DNA of 64,000 bases from positions 3,348,001 through 3,412,000 of the forward strand of contig NZ_CP033929.1 of the NCBI RefSeq assembly GCF_003815915.1, read 5' to 3'. The stretch comes from Chryseobacterium indoltheticum. GTDB lineage: Bacteria > Bacteroidota > Bacteroidia > Flavobacteriales > Weeksellaceae. The translations under genes and the position numbers were made by a program. This document shows, piece after piece, positions 5,727 to 63,961 of this stretch; the stretch's first letter is position 1, and every line of letters starts with the position of its first letter. The notes under the pieces were generated by a model that saw only the letters and a list, made by a program, of their open reading frames with translations, did not search any database and was not told the DNA's origin.

Positions 5727-5743
5727 TTTAATTTTTAATATAT

Positions 5744-6304: not shown

Positions 6305-6309
6305 AAAAC

Positions 6310-30259: not shown

Positions 30260-30778
30260 CTAATATTCTATTTTATAAAAATCCTTATTATTTTTTAATG
30301 TATCAGTACTCAAATTGAGTTCAATTTTTAAGCGCTTAATATTCTTCCGTTCTTTAATAAAATAAACATCATTCCTTAAAATTAACTGATCATTTCTTAA
30401 ATGTAATAAATAAAATTCATTTGTAAGAGTATCTATTTTATTGATTATAAATCTGTTATTTTTATAATCAACTTTTCCTGAAACTTTATTATTAATAAAG
30501 ATGTTTTTCTCATTAAAAGAAATAATCTTATTTTCCACATTTTTTTCATAAACGACAGTCCCGTTGATTTGATCGTATACTTTATATTTTCTTAATTTCC
30601 ATTTGTTGGATTGTAGTATTTCAGATTGCCTACTAGTAACAGCCCCCCTTAATCCCAAGTTTTCTTTTTTCTCAATATTATTGGTTGTTTCTTCTTTTTT
30701 ACAACCAATAATACCGAGTAAAATACTACAAATTGATAAAAGCCTAATCAGGTTTGCGAATTTTTTGATGATCTTCAT
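30260..30778 (-). CDS. Lipoprotein, candidate immunity protein for the Rhs toxin
   Basis: A 172-residue lipoprotein: signal with lipobox LLGIIGC (Cys near residue 26), then a charged linker and a beta-rich domain (WKLRKYKVYDQINGTVVYEK resembles a lipocalin-like start). Its start lies inside the 3' end of the giant Rhs gene (35-base overlap), so the two are translationally coupled. The position and periplasmic location fit an immunity protein against a toxin tip acting on the cell wall or in the periplasm. The immunity role is inference from context. Confidence 0.65.
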   Translation of the reverse strand: MKIIKKFANLIRLLSICSILLGIIGCKKEETTNNIEKKENLGLRGAVTSRQSEILQSNKWKLRKYKVYDQINGTVVYEKNVENKIISFNEKNIFINNKVSGKVDYKNNRFIINKIDTLTNEFYLLHLRNDQLILRNDVYFIKERKNIKRLKIELNLSTDTLKNNKDFYKIEY

Positions 30779-33700: not shown

Positions 33701-36700
33701 TCACCGCTCTGCCAAAGAGATCATAATTTGTAATTCCCGATATTGACATCCTTTCAACTCCCACATGCTCAATATCCTTCTTAACCTGAACTACTCTACC
33801 AAGACCGTCAGAAAAAGCAATTGTTTCTACCGGATTTTCAGGATCTTCCTCATTGTAGTGCTTCGTATTAACTCTATAAACATTTATATTGGAGCCTGGG
33901 GTTTTTTGAATAATATTATATTCATATAGTATGGTGTATTTTCCAAAATGATTTGTGGGGGGAAGGCTCGCTTCCCTTGGGCCTAGCACTATACGTAATC
34001 TCCCATTATCATCATACATATATTCTGTAGTATTTCCTCCAATATCAGTAATTTTTGTTGGAACATCAAATCTTGAGTTATACTCTGCTGTTGAAGTTTC
34101 ATAGAATGCATTGGTAGTCTTAATAATATATTTATTATATATATTATCATATTCGTAATCAAGTTTATACCTAGAATAAGTATCATTGTAAGGATATTGA
34201 ATACGGGTAAGGTTACCATAATTATTGTAGGTCAAGTCAGTCACTGCAAACTGAGAACTATTCACTTTGACTTTAATCTGATTTATATCACCATTAGCAT
34301 TTACAGAAGTTTCTCTATGTCTTAATGCAGAACCTCCCGGAGAAGATCCAGCATAAACATCAATGGATTGTGGCACTGAAATCATATTGTTACTTAGACC
34401 TTGATGGTATGAAATTTCAGAGTTATAAGTTAATGTCGGACTTGAATACATATGATTTTTCAAAAGACCTATTGCATTATAAGTCATAACTTTCGAATTT
34501 TCAATAATTCCATTGTTTTCATACTGAGAGTTGGTCACTTTGGCTGGTAAAATCCTAGCCATACGCCTTCCTTCTCTACCACCGGAATCAAAGGCTTCGA
34601 AATCATTTGGATCAGTTGCGACAAGTTGTGTTATTCCCGTATTAAATTTGTATAGTTTATATTCATTCTTCACCTTTGAAAGAATAGCGTTAGAACCAGA
34701 GTATTGTTCAGACGTTTTAAGAAGTCCTGCAGTATGGAAGCTTTTATTATAAAACATATCTACATTTTTTCTATATAAAGTATTTCCTTCACTAAATTCA
34801 TGGGTTTCTACTTTTTCAAAACCTAAAAATTCTCTTTCTCTTCTATCATATTTGCCACTTTCATAATGAAATGTTGTGATAATATCTTTATCAACAGTTG
34901 ACTGTGTATAAGTAGGAGAAAAAACATCAGGATTCAATATTTTAACTTCTCCTAAAACTAATCTAGCATTTGGATCATTATAATCAGGGGTTGTGTATTT
35001 ATAATCAATTTCAAAGCTTTGCTTAGAAACATTATTTGTAACACTTTTAAGTTTGTTGGTTTTTCCGATACGTGAATAATTCACGATGATGTCATTTCCT
35101 TCGTATCTTATAAGATCATTGTATCCGTCGCCGTTCATATCCCGTAATCCCTTTTTTACTTCTGAGATAGTCATTCCAATATTTGCTGACGCATCTACCC
35201 CCACCTTTATGTATAGGTTAAACAAAAAGAAGAAAGGAAAAATAGGAATTGGACCAATTGGTAAATAAATGTGACCTCCGATATTAGCATACCCACTTAA
35301 ATCTTGACGTTCTTCAGTAAAGTTTATATTCTGATTAGACTGTTTTTTTAAATTTACAGGATCTGAAAATTTGTTCCCAAGATTATAACTTACACTCAGC
35401 TCTGATGAACTCACAGAAAGAAGATCGATTAATCCATCACCGTTTACGTCTTCAAATGTTTTTTCTGAAGTACTTGAAGATTTTGATGACCCAACTCCAA
35501 TTTCAAGTCCGAAGTTTGATCCTAACGCTGCTAAAGTATTTATCAAACTGGACAGGGAGGTTCCAAATGACATCCCCGTAGAGCCAACAGGCACTGATGA
35601 ATAGGTACTTGAATTATAAAAATTTGTTGCTGGTAACATTCCTGTACCATAATTTAAACTAGTGGTAAAGCCAGAGGCCGAAGCATTAGAAATTCTATCG
35701 ATTAATCCGTCACCGTTGATATCCATCCAATATGCCTTTCCATAATCTTTTGAATCAAAATTATATGACGAATTAACCCCAACTGCCGGAGACCAGGCAC
35801 TTGAGTTATCTGCTTGTGCGGTAGTTCCTCTGCCAAGTCCTGTTTTAGCATTGGATCCAGTTGTTTTAAATGCCTTCACATTAAAATTTGCACCTAATGT
35901 AATTGCATTCTGATAATTGTCAGAAATTGATACATAATCTCCAATAAATGCTGCCTGTGGCGCTTTATGCCCACCAGTAGGTTCTGTTAATTGAACTCTT
36001 TCTTTGCTAAAAAAGTCTGGATAGCCGTCACCGTTTAAATCATTAAAATCTTGTAGTAAAATACTACCTTGAGGATCAACAAGAGATGATTCAGAATATC
36101 CCATACTTGCTCCAACACCTATATTGCCTGAAGCTCCTCCACTGTAAGACTTAGTTTTTGAATTACTTAAATAAATTTTATCTACAGCTTTCATTGTTGT
36201 CATTTCAGAATCTGGTCCTACGTTGCTAAGATCTTCTGAATTTGCAGGATCGAAATCAAGAGGTAGATTCGTAAACACTCCTGTAGAAAATTCATCATCT
36301 TTAAAAGCATCCGCTGAGGAATATTGTTCCGGTCCTGCACCTTTCCATTTTTCAGTCTGTCCAACTTTATAGGTTGTCAGAGGAAAAAGACTCTCTGACA
36401 TTACCATCGTAGAGTTTTGTGCTACACAAGCCTGGATTTGATCGGGATCAGTAAGATGATTACAGTTTGCGGTATTAATATTAATTATTGGAGGTGCATA
36501 TTTTACCAAAACACCATATTCATCACATTGCGAATCTAAAACACATTTACTGTCATAAATATCTCTGTGGAGAAATTGACCCCAGTTTTTATAAATTTTG
36601 GATATGGGGTTCATGTCTTCAGAATGAATGGATGTTTCAGGAACTGTGGTCAGTAATACATCGTTATCATAATATACATTAAAGGCTTTCTGCAAAAAAA

Positions 36701-39700
36701 ATGATGTTAATTTATTATAAGCTTCCCTATCGTAAGCATTTTCCAAAAAGACCTGAATTGAAAGTTCGTGTCCCCTCGGAATAAAAAAAGAAGATAAGTC
36801 ATCTGTGTATACTGGAACTCCATTGATGCCCGAAATAGTTTGGTTTGTTTCCAAATTCATTTCATACAAAGACGTAACACCATTATTATGCACAATAAAA
36901 ACTTTTCGTTTACCGAGAACTTGACCCGCTTTTTTTATTACATAAGTAAAAGTACAGTCAGGGAAATTGTTAAATTGAGACAACGGAATGTTCTTATTGA
37001 TTTGAACAGTATATGTTTTTGTTCCTGGTGGAAAATTATTAGTGTAATTAGATAAACTAATTTTAGGTTTATGATCCGTTATGTAGGTAGAATTATATTT
37101 TGGAACCAGATTTAATAAATAATTATTTCCTCCGGTCAGATAATTAACAGTAATATTATTGAGACCTGTATTTTTGTAAGCTATGTGAGAAGTACTCTCA
37201 ACCAGGAACAACAATACTGATGGGTCTGAAATATTTGCATTTAAAGTAAATGCAGGTATCGTCAAAGTTGTTTGTAAATTTCCATACGTTTGAGAAAACA
37301 ACTGAGTAGTTTGATTAGTGATAAGATTTTGAACAAGAACACGAATTTTAACCTGATCATTTAATCTATTGAAAATAATCTGAGGTACATTTACTACTAT
37401 ACTTCCATAATGATCTAACTTTACACCAGACTCATAATTATTCAATAAGAAATTTGTAGAATAGCTTCCGTTATTGATATTAAAGCCGTCTACATCTGTG
37501 ATTGTTGAATTAAGTAAATCATTGCCGGACGCATCCACATAAAATATCTCTGGATTTGAAAACACTTTATAATTCTCATCTTGATTCTGATGAAGTTTTA
37601 TGAATACTTTTTCTCCAGATCTGATATAAAGCATATTAGAGCTGTTATATCCTAAGTGGTTACTTGAATTAAGAGGTGGCATGGCCTGTATCTGAGAGAA
37701 GTAATCATTATACCTGCGAATGTTAATCGATTGAGGCGACATACCTGCTAGTATTTTTGTTAAATAAATCCTTACAGGTTGAGAGTAAGTATATTGGCCA
37801 GAAGGTATTTCGACTGAATAAACAGCATTAGCTCCATTCACGTTTTCAATTGAAATTTCATCACGAAACCGTATATAACCGTCACGCGGAGCAACCCAAA
37901 CCTTAACAACGTCATCTTTTGGTAAAACATCTTGAGCAACAGGCTCAACTGGCTTTGCCTTTATAACCATATTTTCTGTAGACTCACTAAACTTGGTAAA
38001 AGTTGGAATGCCATTATCAATTCTGTTAAACCACACGTTTTTTCCATCAACTACATCCATAATACCATCAGAATTTGCATCAATCAGATAAGTTGTTGTT
38101 GTACTTTTATTAGTAGTCTTAATATTTGAGGTATTTGCAAATATACTCCAGTTTAGAAAGCTTATTGAACCTCCAAAATCTTTACCTCTACTTTTTGATT
38201 TAGTCTCTGTATAAGCAAAATTACTTTGTAAATTTTTTATCTTTTTTTCAAATCCAAAACTACCTAAGATACCTGTGCTAGATAATTTTCCTGGTCTAAG
38301 GTACAATCCATTATTCTTTTTATACAAGATATCAGGAATTCCATCACCATCAAAATCTACAAGTTGCTGTGCGCCCCTGGCTTTTGCGTGAGAACTACTT
38401 GTTAGGGGAGAATACAATATAATATTACCATATGGATTTTGGGTGAAAGTTAAAAAATCCAGCATGATGCTTAATCGAAAAGCAGACCCTTCTTCTTTAG
38501 TGTAGGTTGTATTAATTTTGGCAGGATTATGACCAGGTGGAAGTTCAAACAGAGAAGAATCCGGTTGAAATGTAGTAACACTTGTATCAGGACCAAATAA
38601 AGGTAAAGGATTTCCTGCATTGCTAACCTCATTGTGATATTCAAGATCAAAGGTATTGAAATAGTGTTCTTGCTCTGCTACCCAAAATCTTGTTAATAAG
38701 CTTTTGTTGAACTCTCCATCTTTGTACCAAAACCTATATGATTTAAAATATTGTGTAGGTGAAAAACCCAAATTATCATAAATTTTTATAACATCTAATC
38801 TATGAGGAGTTATTTGCTTAGCTCCTTGTTTTGCATTAATCAGTAAATCTTTTCTTAAAATTGATGCTTCCTTCTCAAAAACAATTGAATAACCACCATC
38901 ATTCCCATCCTTTCCTGTATAATAAATAGAATGGATGTTAAAAATACGTCCTCCTGCGAGATTTGAATTTTCAGTTGACTGCGCACCTAAAGAACTGTTA
39001 TCATAGTAGTATTTTATATTATTACGATATGTGTCTTCTACTTTATAAATGCCCCATTTAATAATCTGACCTGAAACGGCACGAAGAACAGATTGCTGAT
39101 CAATAGCAGATTCATCACCGCCATAGTATGATTTTATACCATTTATAGAGGTTACAACCCATCTATAATCTGAAGGAGTGGTTCCATACCTCTCAATTTT
39201 ACTGAAATCGTGCCCCTTGCGTAAATAGAAAGATTTGTATCCAGTGGAATTTCTTGGCTGCATGGCCGTTGATATTCCATTTGCATTAATATTATGTCTT
39301 TGCGGTAAATAGTTGTCTTCATAAACTAACATCTGACCGTCCAACGAGTACAATTCCGATTCACCGGTAGAATCAAATGAAGGAGCGCCCCATCTTGTGT
39401 CTAAATCTATAGATGAAATACCACTGATATCCCAGCCTTCTCCCATCCAGCCATTTCCAGTACTACTATTGTAAGTAATTGATAAATTGGGCTGCAAACC
39501 ATTACGTCCTGAGGGAATTACAATAGGATATGACATTGCTGCATCACCGTTCTGACTTGCACTTGGAGGTGAAACAAAATGCATTGCTGCAGTAGGATCG
39601 CCTGCCTTGATACCACTCATACTTGTTGGGGAAGAAGCGTTTGTTTGCGGTGATTCAGGGACAGAAATTACTCCATTTATAAAATCTCCATCACCATTAC

Positions 39701-41021
39701 TTTCAAAAGTAACCATTTTATTTTGTTCGTCAACAATTGTAGATGGCTCCATCTTCCATTGTTTTCTTTCATAGTCAAAAGAGAAAATCTTAATTTCTTT
39801 TGGAGATGTAAGACCTAATTTCTTTTCGTCATATGGAATGCTAATTTTTAATTTTTTTGTAAGCTGTCCTGATTTTAACGAAATTCTGTATGCGGAATTG
39901 TTTGATGTAACGTTTTTAAGACCATTAGAAACAGCAGGGAAATCTTTTTCTCTTAGTTTTAATAAGTCTACAGAAGCTGTCTCTGTGCTTTCTTTGTCAA
40001 CTTTAAGATTCAAGTCCTCATAATTAAGATCAAGTTCCTGATCTTTGGAAAGATCCACTGATTTATAATTATAAATATTATTGTTGACTATTTTAAATGA
40101 CTTGATATCATTGGGAATCTTAACATACTCTCTGCTTCCTTCTCTTATAATAACGAAATTACCTGATTTTTTATCTATTTCATTTATTTTAAATACCTTT
40201 TCAAACTCCCCATTTTTAGAAGTAATATCCGTGTTATTGATTGAAAGTGAATTTTTACTGAAGCCTTTGACATAAAGAACATCTCCAGACAAAAGAGAAG
40301 TGATACCAAAATCTTTTATTTCAGATTTACTTTTTTCAAATACAATTTTCAGATTTTTAATCTTGTACTTAATACCTGATGAAGGAGAAGTAAAAAGTAT
40401 GGTGTTAAGCCCTTCTTTTAATAACGATGGATTTAGCTCTTCTTTCTGATGACTCCATTCTGAAGATGGCACAATAATTTCTCCACCGATTGATTGATGA
40501 TGATTAACTGAACGTGAAACTGATTGATGATAAGCTAAACCAAAAAGTTCATATTCTAAAAAGACATGTAGTCCATCGTAAGGAACTTTTGGAATATTAA
40601 TGCTGAAGAAATTATCTCTAATACGGTCTTCCTCATTATCAGAAAATACGCCAATAGTACCTTCCTTTTCAACAGCAGAAAAATTTATAATATTTTCAGA
40701 TATCGTTTTTTCTGAAATACTGTGATTTATTTTTTCAGATTTAAAATTCCCCGTACTTAAAGTTTTTTTTTCACTGACATTATTTACAGGAAAGGAATTG
40801 CGTCTATCAGTATTAAATAATTGAGACAATAGTTTGAAATCAGATTTCTCAGATAAGATTCCATTATTTTTATGATTAGTTCTACTCCATGATTTCTTCC
40901 ATTCTCTTACCTTGTCCCTGTCTTCTTTTGTAAAACTCGCAAAAACAAACATAACAAAAAAAAAGCTCGCTAATAAAGCCGACTTCTTACTAAAAGGAAG
41001 TTTATTTAATTTTATTTTCAT
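30744..41021 (-). CDS. Giant SpvB/TcB-like Rhs polymorphic toxin
   Basis: A 3,425-residue protein. Layout: Sec signal (FFFVMFVFASFT); a unique region to about residue 470; an SpvB domain (about 477-550, PIVIPSGRNGLQPNLSITYN and GWMGEGWDISG); six D-x-N/D-x-DG-x2-D calcium-type FG-GAP repeats near residues 889, 979, 1659, 1765, 1856 and 1960; YD/Rhs repeats (about 2330-3100); the Rhs-associated core (about 3107-3190, ending LIDPDGRAP); then a variable tip of 230 residues. The tip has SNCYGWVL (Cys3287) and GDLLLWDGHIIEATG (His3338), a pattern like NlpC/P60 or CHAP cysteine peptidases/amidases. The Rhs shell would encapsulate the tip until delivery. It starts 9 bases after the T9SS-sorted gene and overlaps the lipoprotein gene. 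Confidence 0.93.
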   Translation of the reverse strand: MKIKLNKLPFSKKSALLASFFFVMFVFASFTKEDRDKVREWKKSWSRTNHKNNGILSEKSDFKLLSQLFNTDRRNSFPVNNVSEKKTLSTGNFKSEKINHSISEKTISENIINFSAVEKEGTIGVFSDNEEDRIRDNFFSINIPKVPYDGLHVFLEYELFGLAYHQSVSRSVNHHQSIGGEIIVPSSEWSHQKEELNPSLLKEGLNTILFTSPSSGIKYKIKNLKIVFEKSKSEIKDFGITSLLSGDVLYVKGFSKNSLSINNTDITSKNGEFEKVFKINEIDKKSGNFVIIREGSREYVKIPNDIKSFKIVNNNIYNYKSVDLSKDQELDLNYEDLNLKVDKESTETASVDLLKLREKDFPAVSNGLKNVTSNNSAYRISLKSGQLTKKLKISIPYDEKKLGLTSPKEIKIFSFDYERKQWKMEPSTIVDEQNKMVTFESNGDGDFINGVISVPESPQTNASSPTSMSGIKAGDPTAAMHFVSPPSASQNGDAAMSYPIVIPSGRNGLQPNLSITYNSSTGNGWMGEGWDISGISSIDLDTRWGAPSFDSTGESELYSLDGQMLVYEDNYLPQRHNINANGISTAMQPRNSTGYKSFYLRKGHDFSKIERYGTTPSDYRWVVTSINGIKSYYGGDESAIDQQSVLRAVSGQIIKWGIYKVEDTYRNNIKYYYDNSSLGAQSTENSNLAGGRIFNIHSIYYTGKDGNDGGYSIVFEKEASILRKDLLINAKQGAKQITPHRLDVIKIYDNLGFSPTQYFKSYRFWYKDGEFNKSLLTRFWVAEQEHYFNTFDLEYHNEVSNAGNPLPLFGPDTSVTTFQPDSSLFELPPGHNPAKINTTYTKEEGSAFRLSIMLDFLTFTQNPYGNIILYSPLTSSSHAKARGAQQLVDFDGDGIPDILYKKNNGLYLRPGKLSSTGILGSFGFEKKIKNLQSNFAYTETKSKSRGKDFGGSISFLNWSIFANTSNIKTTNKSTTTTYLIDANSDGIMDVVDGKNVWFNRIDNGIPTFTKFSESTENMVIKAKPVEPVAQDVLPKDDVVKVWVAPRDGYIRFRDEISIENVNGANAVYSVEIPSGQYTYSQPVRIYLTKILAGMSPQSINIRRYNDYFSQIQAMPPLNSSNHLGYNSSNMLYIRSGEKVFIKLHQNQDENYKVFSNPEIFYVDASGNDLLNSTITDVDGFNINNGSYSTNFLLNNYESGVKLDHYGSIVVNVPQIIFNRLNDQVKIRVLVQNLITNQTTQLFSQTYGNLQTTLTIPAFTLNANISDPSVLLFLVESTSHIAYKNTGLNNITVNYLTGGNNYLLNLVPKYNSTYITDHKPKISLSNYTNNFPPGTKTYTVQINKNIPLSQFNNFPDCTFTYVIKKAGQVLGKRKVFIVHNNGVTSLYEMNLETNQTISGINGVPVYTDDLSSFFIPRGHELSIQVFLENAYDREAYNKLTSFFLQKAFNVYYDNDVLLTTVPETSIHSEDMNPISKIYKNWGQFLHRDIYDSKCVLDSQCDEYGVLVKYAPPIININTANCNHLTDPDQIQACVAQNSTMVMSESLFPLTTYKVGQTEKWKGAGPEQYSSADAFKDDEFSTGVFTNLPLDFDPANSEDLSNVGPDSEMTTMKAVDKIYLSNSKTKSYSGGASGNIGVGASMGYSESSLVDPQGSILLQDFNDLNGDGYPDFFSKERVQLTEPTGGHKAPQAAFIGDYVSISDNYQNAITLGANFNVKAFKTTGSNAKTGLGRGTTAQADNSSAWSPAVGVNSSYNFDSKDYGKAYWMDINGDGLIDRISNASASGFTTSLNYGTGMLPATNFYNSSTYSSVPVGSTGMSFGTSLSSLINTLAALGSNFGLEIGVGSSKSSSTSEKTFEDVNGDGLIDLLSVSSSELSVSYNLGNKFSDPVNLKKQSNQNINFTEERQDLSGYANIGGHIYLPIGPIPIFPFFFLFNLYIKVGVDASANIGMTISEVKKGLRDMNGDGYNDLIRYEGNDIIVNYSRIGKTNKLKSVTNNVSKQSFEIDYKYTTPDYNDPNARLVLGEVKILNPDVFSPTYTQSTVDKDIITTFHYESGKYDRREREFLGFEKVETHEFSEGNTLYRKNVDMFYNKSFHTAGLLKTSEQYSGSNAILSKVKNEYKLYKFNTGITQLVATDPNDFEAFDSGGREGRRMARILPAKVTNSQYENNGIIENSKVMTYNAIGLLKNHMYSSPTLTYNSEISYHQGLSNNMISVPQSIDVYAGSSPGGSALRHRETSVNANGDINQIKVKVNSSQFAVTDLTYNNYGNLTRIQYPYNDTYSRYKLDYEYDNIYNKYIIKTTNAFYETSTAEYNSRFDVPTKITDIGGNTTEYMYDDNGRLRIVLGPREASLPPTNHFGKYTILYEYNIIQKTPGSNINVYRVNTKHYNEEDPENPVETIAFSDGLGRVVQVKKDIEHVGVERMSISGITNYDLFGRAVKQFHPSSENKTTAPFNLQNPNNYLVLSSQQPYFSSTQYDLKDRIIKSTDEDNVDVNIEYDIENGLFKTKTTIPSVSQNNESFSNAEGKTIKSINYVNNQPLTTSFEYDTTGELLSSTDPQGYVTSYTYDMGGRTLSVSHPDRGNTTFTYDPAGNLTKKYTDNITNSSDYTGGQFISYNYNINRLINIHFPNLPNGSNPNNVQYVYGDVGTGNNTGKLIYKSDATGYTTYEYGILGEVINENRTVYGNYIQPMYFNTAYKYDSWNRIKQLTYPDGEILNYQYDFGGNLKKIINESGYEYISNVKYDEYEQRTNIFYGNSTKSEFSYYYSSRRLAGHTLSTISPSPQGLLANQYSYDGVGNIRRLENFADVSSNQMGGGYWFDYQYDELGRLAGTKGEFRIKTFRDETTPPEPGWSPYSVSNSTVDLQMHYNESGGIIHKGQKHIQDLVTNPVNSYENDYEYDNHKVVSITDSNTGFNTIFKYDYNGNTIEEYDMNGSKMMYWDEMDRMRAFYNDHAGVYQYYTYDDGGERTIKYNLSAGSQLYQNGVLINPGSLSLNDYKIYSSPQIVVSSDGRYTKHYFEGSTRFASRIVDGTDIFLNSSVRGTATKTEDKSEDAEVDFKSYLKKAGIEGEISVELENLVSKNGQSRLYYLHGDHLGTANYVTDEYGETTQFFLNLPFGETMAEQMTGVYDNPYKFNAKELDQETGFYYYGARYYNPKWSIWHGVDPLAEKMPSWSPYNYTFDNPITLIDPDGRAPSPPYRWANLNVQITWSNKMIDYDNGDGTINFRGQSGYMMANDRKNCLYVINPQYALLNDLIQDQNGNYGPQTWQAIKSLDASSQQSYKSNCYGWVLTGGLYFINATTREIADFLTADGYAYMGTPSKGTNYKKGDLLLWDGHIIEATGQSKKGLLWQSKQGTNEVFEGTLPEVLYENTSWAAEQGSTSNAILFRPKSNSKDLIMNKNRNPVGTIKKVTNEDHQKIRKPD

Positions 41022-43102: not shown

Positions 43103-43709
43103 ATGAAAATAGGATATGCCCGGGTTTCAACCAAAGATCAAAATTTAGATTTACAAATTGAAGCTTTAGAAAAAGCAGGCTGCAAAAGATTTATCAGGAG
43201 AAAATTTCCGGTACAACAAAAAACCGTCCGGAGCTCGATAAGATAATTGAACAGTTTGGGGAAGGTGACGAACTTTATGTGTGGTGATTAGACAGATTGG
43301 GTAGAAATTTGAAAAATATTATTGATCTTGTCTTAAGTTTCAGTGATAAAGGGATTATAATAAAAGGTCTTGTAGATGGTGTAGATACTTCAACGATTAA
43401 TGGTCGTCTGTTTTTAAACCTTATGGCATCCCTTGCCGACTACGAAAGGGAGTTGATATGAGAAAGAACCTATTTCAGGATTGCAATCTAAAAGAGCAAG
43501 AGGTGAGAACTAGCGGAAGACCGAAGGGATACACTGCAGAAACACTTTCAAAGCCAATCCTTCTGCGTTCAATTTATAAAGATCCAACAATGCGTCCGGA
43601 AGATATTTATAAACCATTTGGATTGACTGGGGCTACATTTTATCGATATGCCAAGATTCTTGATAATCATACGGATGAAGAAATAAAGAAGATGGGAATT
43701 AAGAAATAG
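43103..43709 (+). pseudogene. Serine recombinase (resolvase/invertase), multiply broken
   Basis: Conceptual translation across frames gives a Pin/Hin-type small serine recombinase. MKIGYARVSTKDQNLDLQ holds the catalytic Ser; then come ISGTTKNRPELDKIIEQFG, LDRLGRNLKNIIDLV and SLADYERELI, and a C-terminal helix-turn-helix (GLTGATFYRYAKIL). Lesions seen: a frameshift near 43190, TGA at the position of an Arg before LDRLGR, TGA after ERELI, and further frameshifts around 43475-43510. The longest intact piece (43458-43709) is only the DNA-binding end. It is certainly non-functional. A closely related fragment lies at 44972. Confidence 0.85.
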
Positions 43710-43972
43710 AATCATCTTATTCAAAAAAAAATTACCTTCAGTTAACACAAGAAATGGAATTTGTAATTTATTTTTTAATTTATGGTAACCCACAATTGTT
43801 AACAGATTATAATAATTATCTTTGATTACTTCATATAAACTGAAAAAAGATAAAAGCATGTATTTTATCGCATATCCAATCGAATTTGGATAGATATGCG
43901 CTATAATACAGCGGTTATATACAAGTTGTGCGTCATTTAAAAAAACCGCTGAACAAATTAAATATCAAAATA

Positions 43973-44431
43973 ATGTTAAAAAAATGGTTGAAATTCTTTA
44001 AACAAAATAATATCAAGATTAAACTTGATGTCATTAAAGAAGCCATAATTGATTATCGAAGTGACGGAAAAGAATTGATGCGAAAACTTGCAGAAAAATA
44101 CGGACTTGATATTGAAAATGAAAAAGATTACGAAAAGTTAATCACAAAAAATAACGAAGAAATACCCAGAAATGGAGAACTTTCGAAACGCTGGAATTAC
44201 GCTTTTCACGGTTGTGAATGTGGGTTTTACAATAAAAAGAATAAACAACAAGTAGAAGTTGTATTAAGCAATCAACCTGAATTTGGACACATTGATTCTT
44301 GGTTTCTTTTATCTTATATGGAAACAACTGAGAAATACAAAAAAGAAATAGAAGGGATTAATTGGCAACAACTTGAACCTTTAATTGAAAAATTATATAA
44401 AACTGGTGAAATTGAATCTATAGATGAATAA
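43973..44431 (+). CDS. Small protein of unknown function, possibly DUF6896-like
   Basis: A 152-residue cytoplasmic protein; the ATG at 43973 is chosen over an in-frame GTG at 43928. The C-terminal half (RWNYAFHGCECGFYNKKNKQ, then PEFGHIDSWFLLSYMETT) resembles DUF6896-type proteins that occur in toxin-immunity neighbourhoods, but this is from memory. It is the only intact gene between two dead serine recombinases, and is followed by a large imperfect palindromic repeat ending in AACGTT. It may be an orphan immunity gene. Confidence 0.6.
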   Translation: MLKKWLKFFKQNNIKIKLDVIKEAIIDYRSDGKELMRKLAEKYGLDIENEKDYEKLITKNNEEIPRNGELSKRWNYAFHGCECGFYNKKNKQQVEVVLSNQPEFGHIDSWFLLSYMETTEKYKKEIEGINWQQLEPLIEKLYKTGEIESIDE

Positions 44432-44454
44432 AAAAACGAACGCACAACAGGCGT

Positions 44455-44569
44455 TTGGCAAGATTGCGGATTTTGTAGTAAATTCACGTTTACATTTCGC
44501 AAGAAATTTTGTCTTTAACAGAAAATAATCGGTTCCGAAGTTCGCAACCTCGCCAAGCACCGGAACGTT
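44455..44569 (+). repeat. Cassette-boundary repeat, copy A
   Basis: A 115-base element starting 23 bases after a stop codon. Its ends are imperfect inverted repeats: TTGGCAAGATTGCGG (44455-44469) against CGCAACCTCGCCAAG (44543-44557). The 3' end is CGCCAAGCACCGGAACGTT (44551-44569). The end is shared with copies B and C, and GCGGATTTTG near the start recurs in copy C. Confidence 0.6.
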
Positions 44570-44581
44570 CTAGATAAAATT

Positions 44582-44973
44582 AAATCTCAAAAAACGATCA
44601 ACTAAGTATGAACAATTATAATGGTCAATTTGAACACAATTTTTTTGTTGTAATTGAAGCAGATAATCATGATACCTGTCTAAAATTTGCATCATATATT
44701 AAAAAGCAATAGAACCTTGGTTTTTACAAACGGAGAATATCACGGAGCATAAATCAGCTCGAAAAGGAGATGTATTGAGACGAGATATATCAGTGAAGCA
44801 TACTGCATTTGCTAATGATATTATTATCTTCAATGAAATGCTCCGTACACTAATATGGAATTATAATTTATATTTTAATGTAAAAATAAATATTGATGAC
44901 AGGGGTACGTTACCCAAGGATAGTAGAAAAGCAATCAAAAAAATTAATTGATATTAAAATCTCAAAAAACGAT
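44582..44973 (+). repeat. 17-base direct repeats flanking a decayed ORF
   Basis: AAATCTCAAAAAACGAT occurs at 44582-44598 and again at 44957-44973. The first copy precedes the decayed ORF at 44608; the second fuses directly to the recombinase fragment at the codon for MASLAEYE. The arrangement suggests duplication or insertion through these repeats. Confidence 0.6.
44608..44951 (+). pseudogene. Frameshifted small gene of unknown function
   Basis: The frame starting at 44608 (MNNYNGQFEHNFFVVIEADN...) stops after IKKQ; a later piece reads TNGEYHGA in one frame and continues KSARKGDVLRRDISVKHTAF in the next, ending in KAIKKIN and a stop at 44951. The pieces look like one original protein of about 110 residues with at least two lesions. 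I do not recognise it. It begins 39 bases after the end of repeat copy A. Confidence 0.5.
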
Positions 44974-45298
44974 GGCTTCCTTGGCAGAGTATGAGAGGGA
45001 GCTAATAAGAGAAAAAACTAATGCAGGCTTGCAGTGTGCGAGAGCGAGAGGAAGAACAGGAAGAAGACCAAAGGGTTATACTGCGGAGACAATATCCAAA
45101 CTATTAATTTTGCGCTCCATTTACAAATATCCCCCAAAACGTCTGGAAGATATTTATAAGCCATTCGGACTCACCAGAGCAACATTTTATCGGTATGCCA
45201 AAATACTGGATCATTATACAGATCAAGAAATAAAAAATATGGGAATTAAAATTATTACTTTTAAAATATTTAATTTAAGAAATGTTTACTATTTGTAA
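44972..45298 (+). pseudogene. C-terminal half of a serine recombinase
   Basis: Open frame with MASLAEYERELIREKTNAGL, a GRTGRRPKGYTAET linker and the helix-turn-helix GLTRATFYRYAKIL. This equals the last 100 or so residues of a Pin/Hin-type recombinase. The whole catalytic domain is missing: homology to the copy at 43103 begins exactly at the ATG after the second 17-base direct repeat. The C-terminus runs on into unrelated sequence (IITFKIFNLRNVYYL), so the original stop is also lost. Confidence 0.8.
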
Positions 45299-58066: not shown

Positions 58067-59230
58067 TCATATTTTTCCTTTTAGCACTGAATGTATTGAG
58101 TGTAGCGACAGTTTGCTGTGATCCAAGTTCCAGAATGGATCATTATTGTTTATGACAAAAAAGGTTTTACCAAATATATCAAATTCTCTTACATAACAGT
58201 AAAATAAAAGTTTGGAAATTGTAATAGCAGTTTTTTTGCCCTTATAGTTCAAAATTGTGTACAGAGACTGATGAGTTCCGTCAATATGTACAAATTGGGC
58301 TAAGATTTGTTCTTTTAGAAAGATTCTTCTACCTGCTACTGTCCATCCCTCCGTCCTTTTAACCCTCCCTTTATCAGATATCAAGAACCTTTCATCAAAA
58401 CCAGGAATAGGCTTCCATCCTTCATCCGGCAGATCCTGTAAAGACATATTCATACATGCAGGAGGTTTTTTATGGTCAACACTTGGTTTTCCCAGTTTTT
58501 TCCAAAGAGAAACATTCAACACATCAGGTTTACTATCACCTTGGCCACTCACTTTAAAATCTGCTTTCTCGGGAATATAGGATTGCAGAAACCAACGGAA
58601 TCCACCAGCTGTCAAAAATTCTTTATGGATAACATCCATGATAGATTCAGCACTTTGTCCTATTTGTTTGGCAGCTTCATAAATACTGTCAAATGAAGAA
58701 ACCAGTTTACCTTCTACTGTGTATTGATTAACCGGTTGCTGATAGATAACATGGCGGTTTCTTGCTCTATTGCCTGTGAATATTCTTAAGCGTCTTTCAC
58801 TTGCTGAAACCTTTAATAAATTACAGGAATGAACATGAAGTCCGTTACCGTTCTTTGAGATAATTGCAATGCGCCGGTCATTCAAATCAAACCTTTCGTT
58901 AAAATGATAATATACCAGACGGGCTACTGATTTTCTATATTTTTTACCTTCCAGGGATAAGGTACAATGAACATTATAGCTATTGCTTTTAAGATAAGCA
59001 TTTGATTGCTTCACAAAAATTAGTTTCATTATTAACTCCGGCAGCTTCCAATCGTGTCCTGTTGGAAGAGAAACAAAACGTTCTCTGCTCTTTAACCGCC
59101 CATAGTTTGAAATGGCATAATTTTCAAAACCTTCGATCAGTTTCCATTCTTCATTTTGAAGATTTCTCAAAGAAGTGCTGTACAGGACTTCTTTTACATA
59201 CTCATCTTCAAATTCTTCGGGAAGTCTCAT
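58067..59230 (-). CDS. NUMOD4/NUMOD1 protein with degenerate HNH halves
   Basis: A 387-residue protein built as NUMOD4 (EEWKLIEGFENYAISNYGRL, about residues 27-50), an HNH-like segment (about 100-145), NUMOD1 (QYTVEGKLVSSFDSIYEAAK, about 168-215), a second NUMOD4 (EGWKPIPGFDERFLISDKGR, about 272-296) and a second HNH-like segment to the end. In homing-type endonucleases the HNH segment carries D-H before a G-N; here the first reads IISKNGNG and the second FVINNNDP, so both catalytic His positions are lost. It is probably a DNA-binding protein rather than a nuclease. Single gene at the edge of the accessory island. Confidence 0.78.
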   Translation of the reverse strand: MRLPEEFEDEYVKEVLYSTSLRNLQNEEWKLIEGFENYAISNYGRLKSRERFVSLPTGHDWKLPELIMKLIFVKQSNAYLKSNSYNVHCTLSLEGKKYRKSVARLVYYHFNERFDLNDRRIAIISKNGNGLHVHSCNLLKVSASERRLRIFTGNRARNRHVIYQQPVNQYTVEGKLVSSFDSIYEAAKQIGQSAESIMDVIHKEFLTAGGFRWFLQSYIPEKADFKVSGQGDSKPDVLNVSLWKKLGKPSVDHKKPPACMNMSLQDLPDEGWKPIPGFDERFLISDKGRVKRTEGWTVAGRRIFLKEQILAQFVHIDGTHQSLYTILNYKGKKTAITISKLLFYCYVREFDIFGKTFFVINNNDPFWNLDHSKLSLHSIHSVLKGKI

Positions 59231-59356: not shown

Positions 59357-59524
59357 TTATAATATTTTCTCATCTTTAAAGTAATCATTGATGTTAAGTG
59401 TGTGTTTTTTTCTTTGTTCAAAGAATATTTTATTTTTGATTTCAACCGGCAAAGGCAATTCTCCTCGACCAATTATCTTCGGATCAGTACTCGTATTTAT
59501 CTCACAATAATTCTTCTGTTTCAT
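59357..59524 (-). CDS. Very small orphan ORF
   Basis: A 55-residue open frame starting MKQKNYCEINTSTDPKIIG and ending NINDYFKDEKIL. Composition is protein-like, and the frame starts 56 bases after the AACGTT end of repeat copy B, the same arrangement as other genes of this island. It could be the C-terminal remnant of a larger protein. No family recognised. Confidence 0.4.
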   Translation of the reverse strand: MKQKNYCEINTSTDPKIIGRGELPLPVEIKNKIFFEQRKKHTLNINDYFKDEKIL

Positions 59525-59579
59525 TCATTCCTTGGTTTACTACCGTTAAGATGCGTTTTTTGAAACTTAGTCTTAGTTT

Positions 59580-59665
59580 AACGTTTCGGGCTTGGCGATG
59601 GCGGGCAGATCGATCTACCGAAGCTCAAAACTTGGATTGATGACTTTCCGCCTACTATTTCAAAC
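59580..59665 (-). repeat. Cassette-boundary repeat, copy B
   Basis: On the minus strand this follows the SUKH-like gene by a few bases, contains GGCGG...CCGCC inverted parts (about 59651-59647 and 59605-59600), and ends CGCCAAGCCCGAAACGTT (59597-59580). That end matches copies A and C. Confidence 0.55.
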
Positions 59666-59671
59666 CCCTTA

Positions 59672-60346
59672 TTACCTGCATGTTATTTTCTTCGTAATAA
59701 GGTCTAATGTTATATTCGTTTTTTCACAATCGCCTCCACCATCAGAATGAAATACCCATAAGGAATTGTTGTCCCGACTGTCAATAAATAATATTCGTGT
59801 ATTCTCGTAGCCAATCGCCAAACAATATGAAAGTTCAGTCAGACTAAACTGTTGTTCTTTTGTCGTTTGCGGTTTTTCTTCAATTATTTCCTCTAAGGAG
59901 CTTGCAAAACCTTTAAGTTGTCTAATTGTCAAATATGATTTTCCGTCCACATTTATTTTTTCACAAAGTTCGTTTAAGTTATAAAGGTAAAAGTCATCTT
60001 CGTCTGCAAAAATTGATATTACAGAATTAAAGTTGTTACCTGTCAAATAGTCAAAATAATCAGTCGGTATTTCAATTTTTGCTTTTGCAAGAATAGCCGT
60101 TAATTGTTTGATTGTTTTCTTCTTTTTCTCCACTACAATCTTCGGTTCTGAAAAACCAAATCCGTCAGCTTTCCATTGAACTGTGTCAAACTGAAATTGT
60201 CTTTCGCATTTTGGGCAATGCAGAAACATAAAAGTCATCCTTTTTTCTGCCGCTGATTTTAAAAATTCAAAGTCATTCTTTTCCATTTCTAAAGGGTCAA
60301 AGTTTTTTCCGCAGTCCCAAGGATAAGGGCAAATAATTTCTTTCAT
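59672..60346 (-). CDS. SUKH (SMI1/KNR4)-like protein with N-terminal zinc ribbon
   Basis: A 224-residue protein. The N-terminus has paired cysteines (CPYPWDC and CPKCERQF), likely a zinc ribbon. From about residue 80 the sequence follows a SUKH/SMI1-KNR4 pattern: IEIPTDYFDYLTGNN, DDFYLYNLNELCEKI, SYCLAIGYENTRILFIDSRD and SLWVFHSDGGGDCEK. SUKH proteins are the commonest immunity family of bacterial polymorphic toxins. No toxin gene is next to it, so it may be an orphan immunity gene. It is flanked by repeat copies C and B. Confidence 0.72.
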   Translation of the reverse strand: MKEIICPYPWDCGKNFDPLEMEKNDFEFLKSAAEKRMTFMFLHCPKCERQFQFDTVQWKADGFGFSEPKIVVEKKKKTIKQLTAILAKAKIEIPTDYFDYLTGNNFNSVISIFADEDDFYLYNLNELCEKINVDGKSYLTIRQLKGFASSLEEIIEEKPQTTKEQQFSLTELSYCLAIGYENTRILFIDSRDNNSLWVFHSDGGGDCEKTNITLDLITKKITCR

Positions 60347-60379
60347 TCTGTCTGTATGATGATTGTGTTAAATAGCAGG

Positions 60380-60387
60380 CAAATGTA
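60380..60387 (-). promoter_or_regulatory. -7 box of the SUKH-like gene
   Basis: TACATTTG on the minus strand matches TAnnTTTG, 34 bases before the ATG. It lies between the AACGTT end of repeat copy C and the gene, so this unit seems to carry its own promoter. Confidence 0.45.
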
Positions 60388-60462
60388 TACATCTATTTTC
60401 AGTCACATGACCTAATCAAAGATAAAAAATCATTTTCTAGGATTTAATTTTCACCTATGGAT

Positions 60463-60598
60463 AACGTTCCGGGTCTTTGCGATGGTGAGGAAATCGAAGC
60501 ACAAATCTTCAATTTTGCAAAAAAATTCAATAAAGAACTGCATTAAACTTTGCGGCGTCGCCACCTATTGCAAAATCCGCATTGTGAGATTTGCATTT
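60463..60598 (-). repeat. Cassette-boundary repeat, copy C
   Basis: On the minus strand it begins right after the stop of the secreted-protein gene, contains GCGGATTTTG (as copy A does), and ends CGCAAAGACCCGGAACGTT (60481-60463), matching copies A and B. Confidence 0.55.
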
Positions 60599-61378
60599 TC
60601 AAAAATTTCTGGGTTCCACGTTTTTGAAATCGAAAGGAATTAATGTAATCGAATTTTCATTTTCAATCATCAATTCGATTGTTATTTCTTGCTTTTCACT
60701 CGGAGTCATATCTCTTTTCAACTTTATAAGTTTGTAACCAATTCCTGTTTTTTCATCGACCAACGTTAGTATGTTATAACCAGGTTCAAGTTCTTCATTT
60801 ACCGCTACTACGAAATCTTGTTTTTTGTCAGCTTTATATGCATAAATTAAATCATAATTCTTAAAGTCAATTCTCTTGTACTCGTCTCTATCGTTGGTTC
60901 TATATTCATAGTTTGGAAATACCTTTTCCACAGTTGTAGAATCTACAATACTGAATAAAATGTTAGGATTTTTATTGGTGATACTTTTATCCATTAAATT
61001 AATATTTTTTTTCAAATTTTTGATTTTGCCCAAATTGAAATATGAATTTTTGTTTACTGATGGCTTGAAGTACTTTATCACACCTTTAACATTGAAATTT
61101 TTGTATTTTTTCTTCTTATCAACTTCATATCGTGCCAAGACATTAGCTCTTCTGTAAATACGATGAATGAAATTATCCGAAGGTCTTCGCCCCTCATTGT
61201 CTGTTACAATGAGCGTGTCAATTTTAATCAAGTGAAAATTACCATTTGGCTTATTTTCAACTTCTAAGCTTACCTGAATCACGTCAGACATTTTCAATAT
61301 ATCGTATAGCACTTTTTCTTGTGAATAAATTGATACGTGTACTACGGTCAAAAGTAAAAATGTAATTATTTTTCTCAT
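60599..61378 (-). CDS. Secreted protein of unknown function
   Basis: A 259-residue protein with a Sec signal peptide (ITFLLLTVVHVSIYSQ). The mature part is rich in Lys, Asn and aromatic residues, beta-like, with no cysteines and no sorting domain. No family recognised. TAAATTTG at 61440-61433 on the minus strand may be its -7 box. It is followed directly by repeat copy C. Confidence 0.65.
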   Translation of the reverse strand: MRKIITFLLLTVVHVSIYSQEKVLYDILKMSDVIQVSLEVENKPNGNFHLIKIDTLIVTDNEGRRPSDNFIHRIYRRANVLARYEVDKKKKYKNFNVKGVIKYFKPSVNKNSYFNLGKIKNLKKNINLMDKSITNKNPNILFSIVDSTTVEKVFPNYEYRTNDRDEYKRIDFKNYDLIYAYKADKKQDFVVAVNEELEPGYNILTLVDEKTGIGYKLIKLKRDMTPSEKQEITIELMIENENSITLIPFDFKNVEPRNF

Positions 61379-61625
61379 TTATTTTCTGTTTTTCTTTTTG
61401 AGAGATTATGGTTTTGTTCACGGAACAACTTTCAAATTTACGTATTGTAGAATCTGATTTATAGGTTATGTAATTTCCAAATTATTTTCAGCTTTTCTGA
61501 ATTCCTAAAATTCCTTGTTGTCAAATGTTTAGTATGTCAAAAGTTATATTTTGTAACAAGTAAAAATCGGACCGAATTAGTTTGTTTGTCTTTAAGTTTT
61601 GTTCTTAAAATATTGAAGTTCCATT

Positions 61626-61931
61626 TTAGTCGCCTATTATTTCAATCTCTAAATTTTGATGTGAAAAATATTTCAATAACGTCCTAAATTCCAAAATGTC
61701 AATTGTTTTTTGTTTGTCTGTGTTTAAATTTGTTTTCTCAATGTAATTGTCAATTATTTTCACAATCATTTTTTGATTTTCAATTGTTAATTTTACGTCG
61801 CCATACGGGTCAACATAAATGCCCGTCCAATTTTTATACTCCGTGAAGATTTCGTGAAGATTTTTATACTTTTTGTCGTCAAGGCCGAACAAATATTCTT
61901 TGTTGTCAGGTCTGTGAAAGTCTAATGCCAT
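61626..61931 (-). CDS. Small acidic protein, immunity-like context
   Basis: A 101-residue cytoplasmic protein (MALDFHRPDNKEYLFGLDDK...). It contains a predicted alpha/beta pattern with GIYVDPYGDVKLT in the middle. The start MALDFHRPDNKEYLFGL is of a type I associate with small orphan proteins in toxin-immunity islands, but I cannot name the family. It starts 22 bases after an AACGTT end (copy D). Confidence 0.6.
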   Translation of the reverse strand: MALDFHRPDNKEYLFGLDDKKYKNLHEIFTEYKNWTGIYVDPYGDVKLTIENQKMIVKIIDNYIEKTNLNTDKQKTIDILEFRTLLKYFSHQNLEIEIIGD

Positions 61932-61952
61932 AGGTTTGTTACAATTACCGCC

Positions 61953-62090
61953 AACGTTTTCTGGTCTTGTGTTCTGGCGGGTTTAGGAGCACAAGATTTT
62001 AATTTATTACTAAAGTTCATAAGAAGCACAAAAGAGGATGCTTGCACATCAGCCAGCCTAACAAAAAATGCGAGGCAGCAGTAGTTTTTA
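61953..62090 (-). repeat. Cassette-boundary repeat, divergent copy D
   Basis: On the minus strand the stretch before the 101-residue gene contains GTTAGGC (near 62067) and ends with CGCCAG...AAGACCAG and AACGTT (61958-61953). The AACGTT and the CGCC-x-AAG order follow copies A-C but with insertions, so membership is tentative. Confidence 0.35.
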
Positions 62091-62118
62091 TTCTATTCTA
62101 TCCATTTTTTATTTCTCG

Positions 62119-62232
62119 TTAAGTCTTACCTATTTTTCTTGTCTTCACTATTAAGTTGAAAGTTGTCTTAAGTGAAAGTTTCTTTTTGAATTTGTTAAGT
62201 TCGCTTATTTTTTCGTATTCAAATTCTTTGTC
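62119..62232 (-). pseudogene. C-terminal remnant of a lost gene
   Basis: A 37-residue open piece (DKEFEYEKISELNKFKKKLS, then LKTTFNLIVKTRKIGKT and a stop) preceded by an in-frame stop. It has protein-like composition but no start, and it lies just before repeat copy D, in the slot where a gene would be expected. Confidence 0.3.
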
Positions 62233-63401: not shown

Positions 63402-63961
63402 TTAAGACTTTATTATTTTATAAAATGTCGCTTTACTTCCAATATTAAAAGCTTTCATAATTTCCTCAATAGGAAGATTCTTACTTTCGTAGGATGTCTT
63501 TACTAAAGGGGCAATTTTTCTATATTTTTCAGTCATTCCTTTTGGCCTGCCTCCATTTTTCCCTCGAGCTCTTGCAGACTTAGACCTGCATTAGTCCTTT
63601 CGATTAAAACATTTCTTTCGTGTTCAGCCAAAACACAAAATATTTGAAAGATTAGTTTACCACTTGCAGAACTTGTATCTATATTTTCTGAAATAGATTT
63701 AAAGTGTATTCCTTTTTCATTTAGTTCTGTTACAAATTGAATTAACCCAACAGTCGTTCGTCCTATTCTATCTAGTCTCCAAACTGTCAAAGTATCTCCT
63801 TTTCGCATAAAATTTATTAGTTCGTTGAGTTATGGTTTCTCAGATTTAACACCGCTAACTTTGTCGACATAAATTTTTTCAATTCCAATATTTTTTAAAG
63901 CATCAGTTTGTAAATCTAAATTTTGTTCAAACTTGATCACTCTTGCATATCCAATTAACAT
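63402..63961 (-). pseudogene. Serine recombinase with lost catalytic serine, nonsense and frameshift
   Basis: A Pin/Hin-type recombinase can be followed over its whole length: MLIGYARVIKFEQNLDLQTD, VSGVKSEKP, stop, LNELINFMRKGDTLTVWRLD, RIGRTTVGLIQF, LAEHERNVLIERTNAGL, then after a frameshift KSARARGKNGGRPKGMTEKY to a C-terminal helix-turn-helix (GSKATFYKIIKS). Three lesions: the catalytic Ser of the YARVS motif is Ile (ATC); TAA interrupts after EKP near 63836-63834; and one extra base near 63585 shifts the frame. It is more divergent from the two remnants at 43103 and 44972 than they are from each other. Confidence 0.85.

What the first reader, a model, noticed from the sequence alone, without database searches (positions are those of the whole stretch)
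59357..62232. Gene-cassette-like array with a shared boundary sequence
Unrelated small genes in one orientation are separated by intergenic elements that end almost identically: CGCCAAGCACCGGAACGTT (44551), CGCCAAGCCCGAAACGTT (59597-59580) and CGCAAAGACCCGGAACGTT (60481-60463), with weaker relatives at 61953 and 28571. Each element follows a stop codon and each AACGTT is followed within 22-117 bases by a new ORF. Copy A has imperfect terminal inverted repeats like a folded recombination site. The unit gene-element-gene recalls integron cassettes, but the sites are not canonical attC and no integrase is here. The genes look like orphan immunity genes (SUKH-like, DUF6896-like).
Basis: partly seen in the sequence, partly recalled or inferred. 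Interest (0 to 1): 0.78.

Follow-up and report, generated by a model that had tools for sequence, protein, structure and literature searches.

The report
Hidden integron system of Bacteroidota bacteria
The repeated gene-end sequence is the recombination site of an integron-like gene-swapping system found across Bacteroidota; its integrase lacks the part that defines known integrons, and its sites also flank some antibiotic-resistance genes, which may explain how those genes move.

Summary
The shared boundary is real and marks an integron-like cassette system. A covariance model of the ~124-nt element recovers window copies A, B, C and D (not 28571) and finds elements in 58 of 98 genus and 109 of 296 order genomes, in same-strand arrays of up to 19 elements per 20 kb. 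Each cassette starts at GTT; its first ~15 nt are complementary to its own last ~15 nt (102 of 122 independent cassettes; 5.8% of cross pairs). Start position 11 is A in all 102, facing C in 88: a mismatch on the top strand, a G·T wobble on the bottom strand, which is the more stable strand in 97%. Many arrays lie beside a dedicated tyrosine recombinase and a fixed attI-like site carrying different first cassettes. Whole cassette units are duplicated or shared between families. The integrase is outside the IntI clade and lacks the IntI-specific insert. The window holds one solitary cassette (43925-44566) and a decayed array (59580-62072); the same genome has integrase, attI-like site and elements 178 kb away. 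lnu(H) and tet(X3) carry its cassette ends. No open paper that I found describes the system. New variant of a known kind.

The parts
43925..44566 (+). Cassette A: solitary, with matching ends (GTTGTGCGT... at the start, ...ACGCACAAC before the element)
   Evidence: Best start for the element's own end found at 43925, score 12, second best 9, shuffled ends reach it in 7 of 300. Folded circle junction -27.5 kcal/mol on the bottom strand, against -19.2 for the in-place junction and -12.5 +/- 2.7 for mononucleotide shuffles.
43928..44431 (+). Gene of cassette A, DUF6896; probable ATG at 43973, in frame
   Evidence: PF21837 E 3e-20; ORF.
44446..44569 (+). Element A (attC-like site, AAC...GTT)
   Evidence: R1 102.6 bits, E 1e-23 (part of the seed).
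59580..59673 (-). Element B, decayed (left core AAC changed to AAT)
   Evidence: R1 43.3 bits, E 4e-8; sequence.
59672..60346 (-). ORF 224 aa, cassette-like gene between C and B
   Evidence: no Pfam match at E<=0.01; cassette ends do not match (score 1).
60463..60583 (-). Element C (left core AAC changed to AAT)
   Evidence: R1 79.8 bits, E 1e-17; sequence.
60599..61378 (-). ORF 259 aa; 73% identical to a gene downstream of the last element of the L050 cassette array
   Evidence: tblastn, L050:13599-14372; last L050 element 12697-12821.
61626..61931 (-). ORF 101 aa directly downstream of element D
   Evidence: no Pfam match at E<=0.01.
61953..62072 (-). Element D, first of the decayed array
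   Evidence: R1 35.3 bits, E 6e-6.

Best explanation
The elements are the recombination sites of an integron-like system native to Bacteroidota. A cassette runs from GTT through, as a rule, one gene to a ~124-nt element. SHOWN by sequence: in most cassettes the first ~15 nt pair with the last ~15 nt (R arm); inside the element a second arm pair (L) shows compensatory change; arrays are same-strand; many lie beside a dedicated tyrosine recombinase with a fixed attI-like site at which different first cassettes begin; and whole cassette units are duplicated or shared between genomes. INFERRED: the recombinase excises and inserts cassettes through the folded bottom strand, as IntI does with attC. 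Bottom-strand choice is helped by conserved top-strand A·C mismatches that become G·T wobbles below, and by a one-sided bulge. Because the R arm is formed by the cassette's own two ends, the complete site exists in the excised circle or in an incoming single strand with the gene looped out, so natural transformation is a likely route in. In the window, cassette A and the D-C-B remnant are integrase-less relics or outliers of this system.
For: Structure: RNAalifold finds the stem independently, with 12 of 15 pairs compensated; 91.4% of cells paired against 75.9% in shuffles, 14 of 20 pairs changed on both sides, 0 of 500 shuffles as high. Own-end complementarity: 102 of 122 independent cassettes, mean 7.69 against 1.60 +/- 0.14 in 5000 permutations; 40 of 53 in named loci of several orders; 50 of 74 in the first set, which includes seed loci. 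Start position 11 is A in 102 of 102. Bottom strand more stable in 97% of 102. attI-like site: 15 of 22 first-cassette starts found..ACGCAATGCGTAAATTTGGA(A/T)|GTT, with small variants, at 171-176 bp (5 loci) or 127 bp (4 loci) from the integrase. Unit: L186/L187 99.7% identical from 5 bases before its GTT to one base past the next GTT. Two families share a cassette, 90% over 876 of 881 bp. Integrase and at least 3 elements co-occur: genus 14 of 15 against 11 of 83, order 42 of 82 against 14 of 214. lnu(H): ends match at 14 of 15 positions, the mismatch being position 11. R-K-H-R-H-Y residues invariant or nearly so in 37 relatives (that these are catalytic is recalled).
Against: No recombination was observed. 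The window's own cassettes D-C and C-B fail the end-matching test (score 1 each), and the start of cassette A is only moderately significant (7 of 300). In the own genome's integron the first cassette's start is weakly supported by end matching alone (19 of 300) and the second's is not (89 of 300). Elsewhere 24 of 74 (the two window cassettes included), 20 of 122 and 13 of 53 cassettes fail. Several arrays have no integrase near; 44 of 214 order genomes without an integrase hit have at least one element, and 17 of 82 with one have none. Co-occurrence tests ignore shared ancestry, and the order scan scored only 11 candidate sites per genome. A few recombinase hits belong to an IS91-type transposon.
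Confidence: 0.9

Rival explanations
1. It is an ordinary integron: a standard IntI with slightly odd attC sites, already covered by existing tools.
For: Same layout: integrase, attI-like site, same-strand cassettes, folded sites with an AAC/GTT core. NCBI names several relatives 'site-specific tyrosine recombinase/integron integrase'. The C-terminal tail ..SPLD is shared with IntI. PMC8618304 lists Bacteroidota among phyla with integrons (passage).
Against: TIGR02249 score 204, below its cut-off 265; the better match is the XerA-type family NF040815. The stretch that holds the IntI-specific insert is 64-65 residues in 14 of 14 IntI rows, 22-23 in the 23 recombinases of the main group and 30-43 in 5 IS91-type ones. 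The 14 IntI rows form a 100/100 clade without them. The phylum scan found IntI over the cut-off in 57 of 198 genomes, 56 of them outside this class and none in this order. The R arm is 15 nt and private to each cassette. R1 gives one weak match (E 0.06) on a 599-kb Vibrio replicon with a canonical integrase and none on an IntI1 plasmid; I did not check how many attC sites these hold.
Confidence: 0.06
2. Xer/dif-module mobility: genes flanked by dif-like sites moved by the housekeeping XerC/XerD.
For: The recombinase is XerA-like in sequence and fold.
Against: A recombinase distinct from the two Xer-type proteins of the same genome that were in the tree sits beside the arrays. Sites are ~124 nt, folded and in direct orientation. 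pdif modules use 28-bp sites in alternating orientation (recalled).
Confidence: 0.03
3. Transposon-type mobility: IS91/ISCR-like elements carry genes with a hairpin end.
For: IS91-type transposases (PF04986) with their own tyrosine recombinase lie next to ~185-nt sites in L144 and L201, and a recombinase of the same kind in L058; ISCR2 flanks tet(X3) in print (PMC8635130 passages).
Against: I did not survey transposases systematically. But cassettes have private ends, whereas the arm beside these transposons is constant (GTTGAACTAAACC in 5 of 5), and different first cassettes begin at a fixed attI-like site.
Confidence: 0.02
4. Non-mobile dispersed repeats acting as terminators or RNA elements at gene ends.
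For: Hairpins lie just after stop codons (median 17 nt from stop to the end of AAC).
Against: Does not explain within-cassette matching of two ends hundreds of bases apart, the attI-like site, unit duplication or integrase linkage. No Rfam family matches at A, B, C or D.
Confidence: 0.01

Closest known systems
Integrons (IntI / attI / attC), including chromosomal integrons and CALINs
   Same: Integrase plus fixed insertion site, tandem same-strand, mostly single-gene cassettes, cassette ends AAC...GTT with paired arms, folded site with more stable bottom strand, integrase-less clusters.
   Different: Integrase lacks the IntI-specific insert and is outside the IntI clade; R arm 15 nt and private instead of a ~7-nt consensus GTTRRRY (recalled); invariant A at position 11, mostly A·C/G·T; ~124- or ~185-nt elements; integrase either divergent from or in line with the array.
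XerA-type tyrosine recombinases (NF040815; PDB 5hxy)
   Same: Sequence family over the cut-off; best fold match.
   Different: Linked to attI-like sites and cassette arrays; IntI-like SPLD tail.
pdif (Xer) modules
   Same: Discrete genes moved by Xer-type recombination (recalled).
   Different: Dedicated integrase, long folded direct-orientation sites.
Homology-independent resistance-gene uptake in Riemerella anatipestifer (PMC13148043)
   Same: The integrated unit has 27 bp of 5' UTR and 140 bp of 3' UTR, which the authors fold as attC-like. Matched cassettes here have a median 37 nt before the start codon (quartiles 27.5-57.5) and 17 nt from stop to the end of AAC (quartiles 14-26), so with the 118 nt from AAC to the next GTT about 135 nt.
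   Different: In what I read (section 11) no integrase or array is named; its sequence was not tested here.

Membership tests
Integron (strict) | Integrase with the IntI-specific additional domain | tested here: not met
   That stretch is 22-23 residues in 23 recombinases and 30-43 in 5 IS91-type ones, 64-65 in 14 IntI; gap against IntI4 2a3v. Definition from PMC9668308 passages.
Integron (strict) | Integrase inside the IntI clade / over the TIGR02249 cut-off | tested here: not met
   204 bits against 265 for the L050 integrase; IntI is a separate 100/100 clade.
Integron (strict) | attC core RYYYAAC/GTTRRRY (recalled) | tested here: not met
   GTT in 102 of 102 matched cassettes, position 4 is R in 101 of 102, but positions 5-7 are free.
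Integron | attC-like folding: R and L arm pairs, spacer asymmetry, variable terminal loop | tested here: met
Integron | Tandem same-orientation cassettes | tested here: met
   148 of 150 aligned matches on the array strand, the other two echoes of the palindrome; longest ORF forward in 142 of 152
Integron | attI beside the integrase | tested here: met
   conserved site with different first cassettes; start found in 15 of 22 arrays
Integron | Site-specific recombination of single-stranded attC | not testable with these tools
   needs experiments
CALIN-like cluster (window 59580-62072) | At least two sites under 4 kb apart without an integrase | tested here: met
   D, C, B; no PF00589 match inside the window; but the sites are not canonical attC
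XerA-type recombinase NF040815 | Score over the curated cut-off | tested here: met
   234.6 against 220 bits, L050 integrase

The most novel reading that the evidence does not exclude
Bacteroidota carry a second, deeply separate integron lineage that solved single-strand cassette recombination without the IntI-specific domain: the strand is chosen by G·T wobbles that are mismatches on the other strand, and the site is completed by the cassette's own two ends, so that linear single strands taken up by natural competence can be inserted directly. It is the source platform of mobile resistance genes such as lnu(H) and tet(X3).
Probability: 0.45. Interest if true: 0.93.

Novelty: new variant of a known kind. 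Interest (0 to 1): 0.86.

Why it matters
The integron surveys of which I saw passages report few in this group: IntegronFinder 2.0 had In0 earlier and one complete integron in Salinibacter within Bacteroidetes (PMC9024848), and the 11 published taxon attC models include no Bacteroidetes (PMC8352920). Here the elements are in 109 of 296 genomes of the order (Flavobacteriales, by its named relatives), and arrays occur in Pedobacter, Runella, Dyadobacter, Niabella and others. The system offers a testable mechanism for homology-independent resistance-gene uptake in Riemerella ('yet to be fully elucidated', PMC13148043), and for the 'xerD' beside tet(X3). It also lets one ask how a recombinase can use folded single strands without the domain called necessary (PMC9668308 passage).

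Tried and rejected
Rfam: only weak matches, none at A, B, C or D. The tyrosine-recombinase pieces just past the window end (C1:3413545-3414014, two frames) have no blastp match to the array integrase at 1e-15 (L062 was in the database) and no R1 match beside them; I read the stretch and did not follow it. The 28571 copy is not an element. The group of five recombinases placed near IntI in the tree with weak support (86/62) is IS91-linked where I looked, so I do not count it as integron integrase; the main group of 23 has 90/93, below the starred level. Leaving G067 out of the integrase-positive genomes changes the genus test from 15/16 against 10/82 to 14/15 against 11/83; leaving G179 and G190 out of the order test gives 40/80 against 16/216. 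Genus counts were read by hand, order counts; G090, with a broken partial integrase, counts as negative. In one search the scores of 9 for L144 and L058 lie inside the recombinase gene and were discounted. Rows dropped: weak, opposite-strand and duplicate (L062) matches, 16 of 100 matches (weak, cut, partial or opposite-strand), and one of its loci, L304, overlaps the set, 9 of 143 cassette ORFs, most of them duplicates. The AlphaFold model is medium (pLDDT 84, pTM 0.62); Foldseek ranks XerA first and IntI4 next, used only as support. Paper searches: open-licence PMC only.
Full report
Observation. In the genus the motif is in 23 of 98 genomes, the reversed control in 1, and one genome has five copies in a row on one strand.

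The element. 27 elements were aligned. RNAalifold found the stem by itself, with 12 of 15 pairs compensated; with the hand structure 91.4% of cells pair (shuffled 75.9%), and 14 of 20 pairs change on both sides. The covariance model R1 recovers window copies B, C and D, which were not in its seed, besides A, which was. It finds 58 of 98 genus genomes at E<=0.01 and 109 of 296 order genomes at E<=0.001, 44 of 90 genera (only 11 candidates scored per genome, so a lower bound). As a contrast, six whole plasmid-collection records were scanned at E<=1: three from Flavobacteriia gave 5, 6 and 8 matches, a 599-kb Vibrio replicon with a canonical integrase one weak match (E 0.06), an IntI1 plasmid none, and the tet(X3) plasmid one (E 0.23). 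How many canonical attC sites the Vibrio replicon holds was not checked.

Cassette logic. A cassette starts at the GTT that ends the previous element. In most, the first ~15 nt are the reverse complement of the cassette's own last ~15 nt (ending AAC). In the first set, which includes the seed loci, 50 of 74 cassettes score 5 or more, mean 6.2 against 1.97 permuted. In 20 further loci, 102 of 122, mean 7.69 against 1.60 +/- 0.14, no permutation of 5000 above 2.18, cross pairs 5.8%. In 28 named loci of several orders, 40 of 53. In the 102 matched cassettes positions 1-9 match in 98-100%, position 10 in 76%, positions 12-15 in 81-96%, and from 16 on 11-26%. Position 11 is A in 102 of 102 starts; the facing base is C in 88 and G in 12: mostly an A·C mismatch on the top strand and a G·T wobble on the bottom strand. 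Element pairs 15/120 and 18/117 often behave likewise (my reading), while pair 9/126 does the reverse (T·G on top). Folded as DNA, the cassette-circle junction is more stable on the bottom strand in 97% of 102, by 4.6 kcal/mol on average, and more stable than the in-place junction (-33.7 against -25.0).

Integrase and attI. A 274-aa tyrosine recombinase lies beside the L050 array. In the genus, relatives well above the housekeeping Xer level (over 150 bits) occur in 16 genomes, of which 15 have at least 3 elements, against 10 of 82 others; without the genome whose hits look IS91-type, 14 of 15 against 11 of 83. In the order, 42 of 82 against 14 of 214; genomes are not independent. The first-cassette start was located in 15 of 22 arrays: in five loci, the own genome included, it is 171-176 bp from the integrase, and in four others exactly 127 bp, each after ..ACGCAATGCGTAAATTTGGA(A/T) with small variants, and each followed by a different cassette. 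Of the 7 failures, 5 are sites beside recombinases of the IS91-linked group; the other two are L198 and L053. The integrase is divergent from the array in some loci and in line with it in others.

Relation to IntI. NCBIfam gives XerA-type NF040815 above its cut-off and integron integrase TIGR02249 below it. The stretch that holds the IntI-specific insert is 64-65 residues in 14 IntI rows, 22-23 in the 23 recombinases of the main group and 30-43 in the five IS91-linked ones. The tail SPLD (or SPMD/SPFD/SPLE) is shared with IntI. IntI is a separate clade with 100/100 support; the main group has 90/93, and the IS91-linked group joins IntI with weak support, 86/62. Canonical IntI passes its cut-off in 57 of 198 genomes of the phylum, 56 of them outside the class and none in this order.

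Mobility. Among 192 cassette bodies, one is 90% identical over 876 of 881 bp between two families, two are 100% identical between two arrays of one genome, and one pair in a single array (L186/L187) is 99.7% identical from 5 bases before its GTT to one base past the next GTT and not beyond. For the cross-family pair the homology runs from -24 to about 27 bases past the element. Contents are diverse: 134 proteins hit 139 Pfam families, none in more than 4 members, with restriction and abortive-infection genes. The longest ORF is forward in 142 of 152 matched cassettes.

The window. Cassette A (43925-44566) has matching ends (7 of 300 shuffled ends do as well) and folds well as a circle. D, C and B form a decayed cluster: B and C have AAT in place of AAC, and their cassettes fail the end test. 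The gene at 60599-61378 has a 73% relative downstream of the L050 array. The same genome has an integrase (C1:3590164-3590985), an attI-like site and two elements 178 kb past the window end; end matching alone supports its first cassette weakly (19 of 300) and its second not at all (89 of 300). Solitary cassettes with matching ends lie in L063 (1 of 300), after a related attI-like half and with no integrase match in that 18-kb stretch, and in L149 (0 of 300).

Resistance genes. In Empedobacter brevis lnu(H) lies between two elements (annotation), and the ends of that cassette match at 14 of 15 positions, the one mismatch being position 11, A against G. In an Acinetobacter plasmid a truncated relative of the integrase lies directly before tet(X3); the cassette ends around the gene match at 11 of 15, again with A against G at position 11, and the left half of an element follows (my reading; R1 only 15.7 bits, E 0.16). 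PMC8635130 (passages) describes this as xerD-tet(X3) with ISCR2. PMC13148043 (section 11 and passages) reports homology-independent uptake of a unit with 27 bp before and 140 bp after the gene in Riemerella; the lengths fit a cassette of this kind, but I did not test its sequence. V. cholerae recruits cassettes by natural transformation (PMC8191803 passages).

Distribution by name. A 22-base pattern with two two-fold positions stopped at 120 stretches; of the 80 listed, 79 are named as Bacteroidota taxa and one is a Chloroherpeton MAG. Searched for in print; none of the titles and abstract starts listed describes this system, but subscription papers and preprints were not searched.

Noticed in passing
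L144:5498-7533, L201:14266-16371 and 4574-6506; same recombinase type at L058:4352-5212: IS91-type transposons (PF04986) with their own tyrosine recombinase, next to ~185-nt sites that the cassette-site model also matches; their R arm is constant. A transposon may use or imitate the cassette site.
   Followed up: partly
   Followed up: partly
L180:4022-6077: tet(X3) in Acinetobacter looks like a truncated cassette next to a truncated integrase of this family.
   Followed up: partly
window 43350-43709, 44970-45298, 63533-63808: Partial serine-recombinase (resolvase-like) genes around the solitary cassette and near the window end; only 63533-63808 was tested (PF00239).
   Followed up: partly
window 58067-59230: NUMOD4/NUMOD1 protein (homing-endonuclease-associated motifs), 46% identical to one in L151.
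   Followed up: partly
attI-like sites, e.g. L050 around 2892: TAnnTTTG just before the GTT may be the -7 box of a Bacteroidota promoter (recalled), so attI may hold the cassette promoter.
   Followed up: no
window 30744-41021: A 3425-aa ORF upstream of the cassette region, not analysed; its size suggests a polymorphic toxin or Rhs-like protein (a guess).
   Followed up: no
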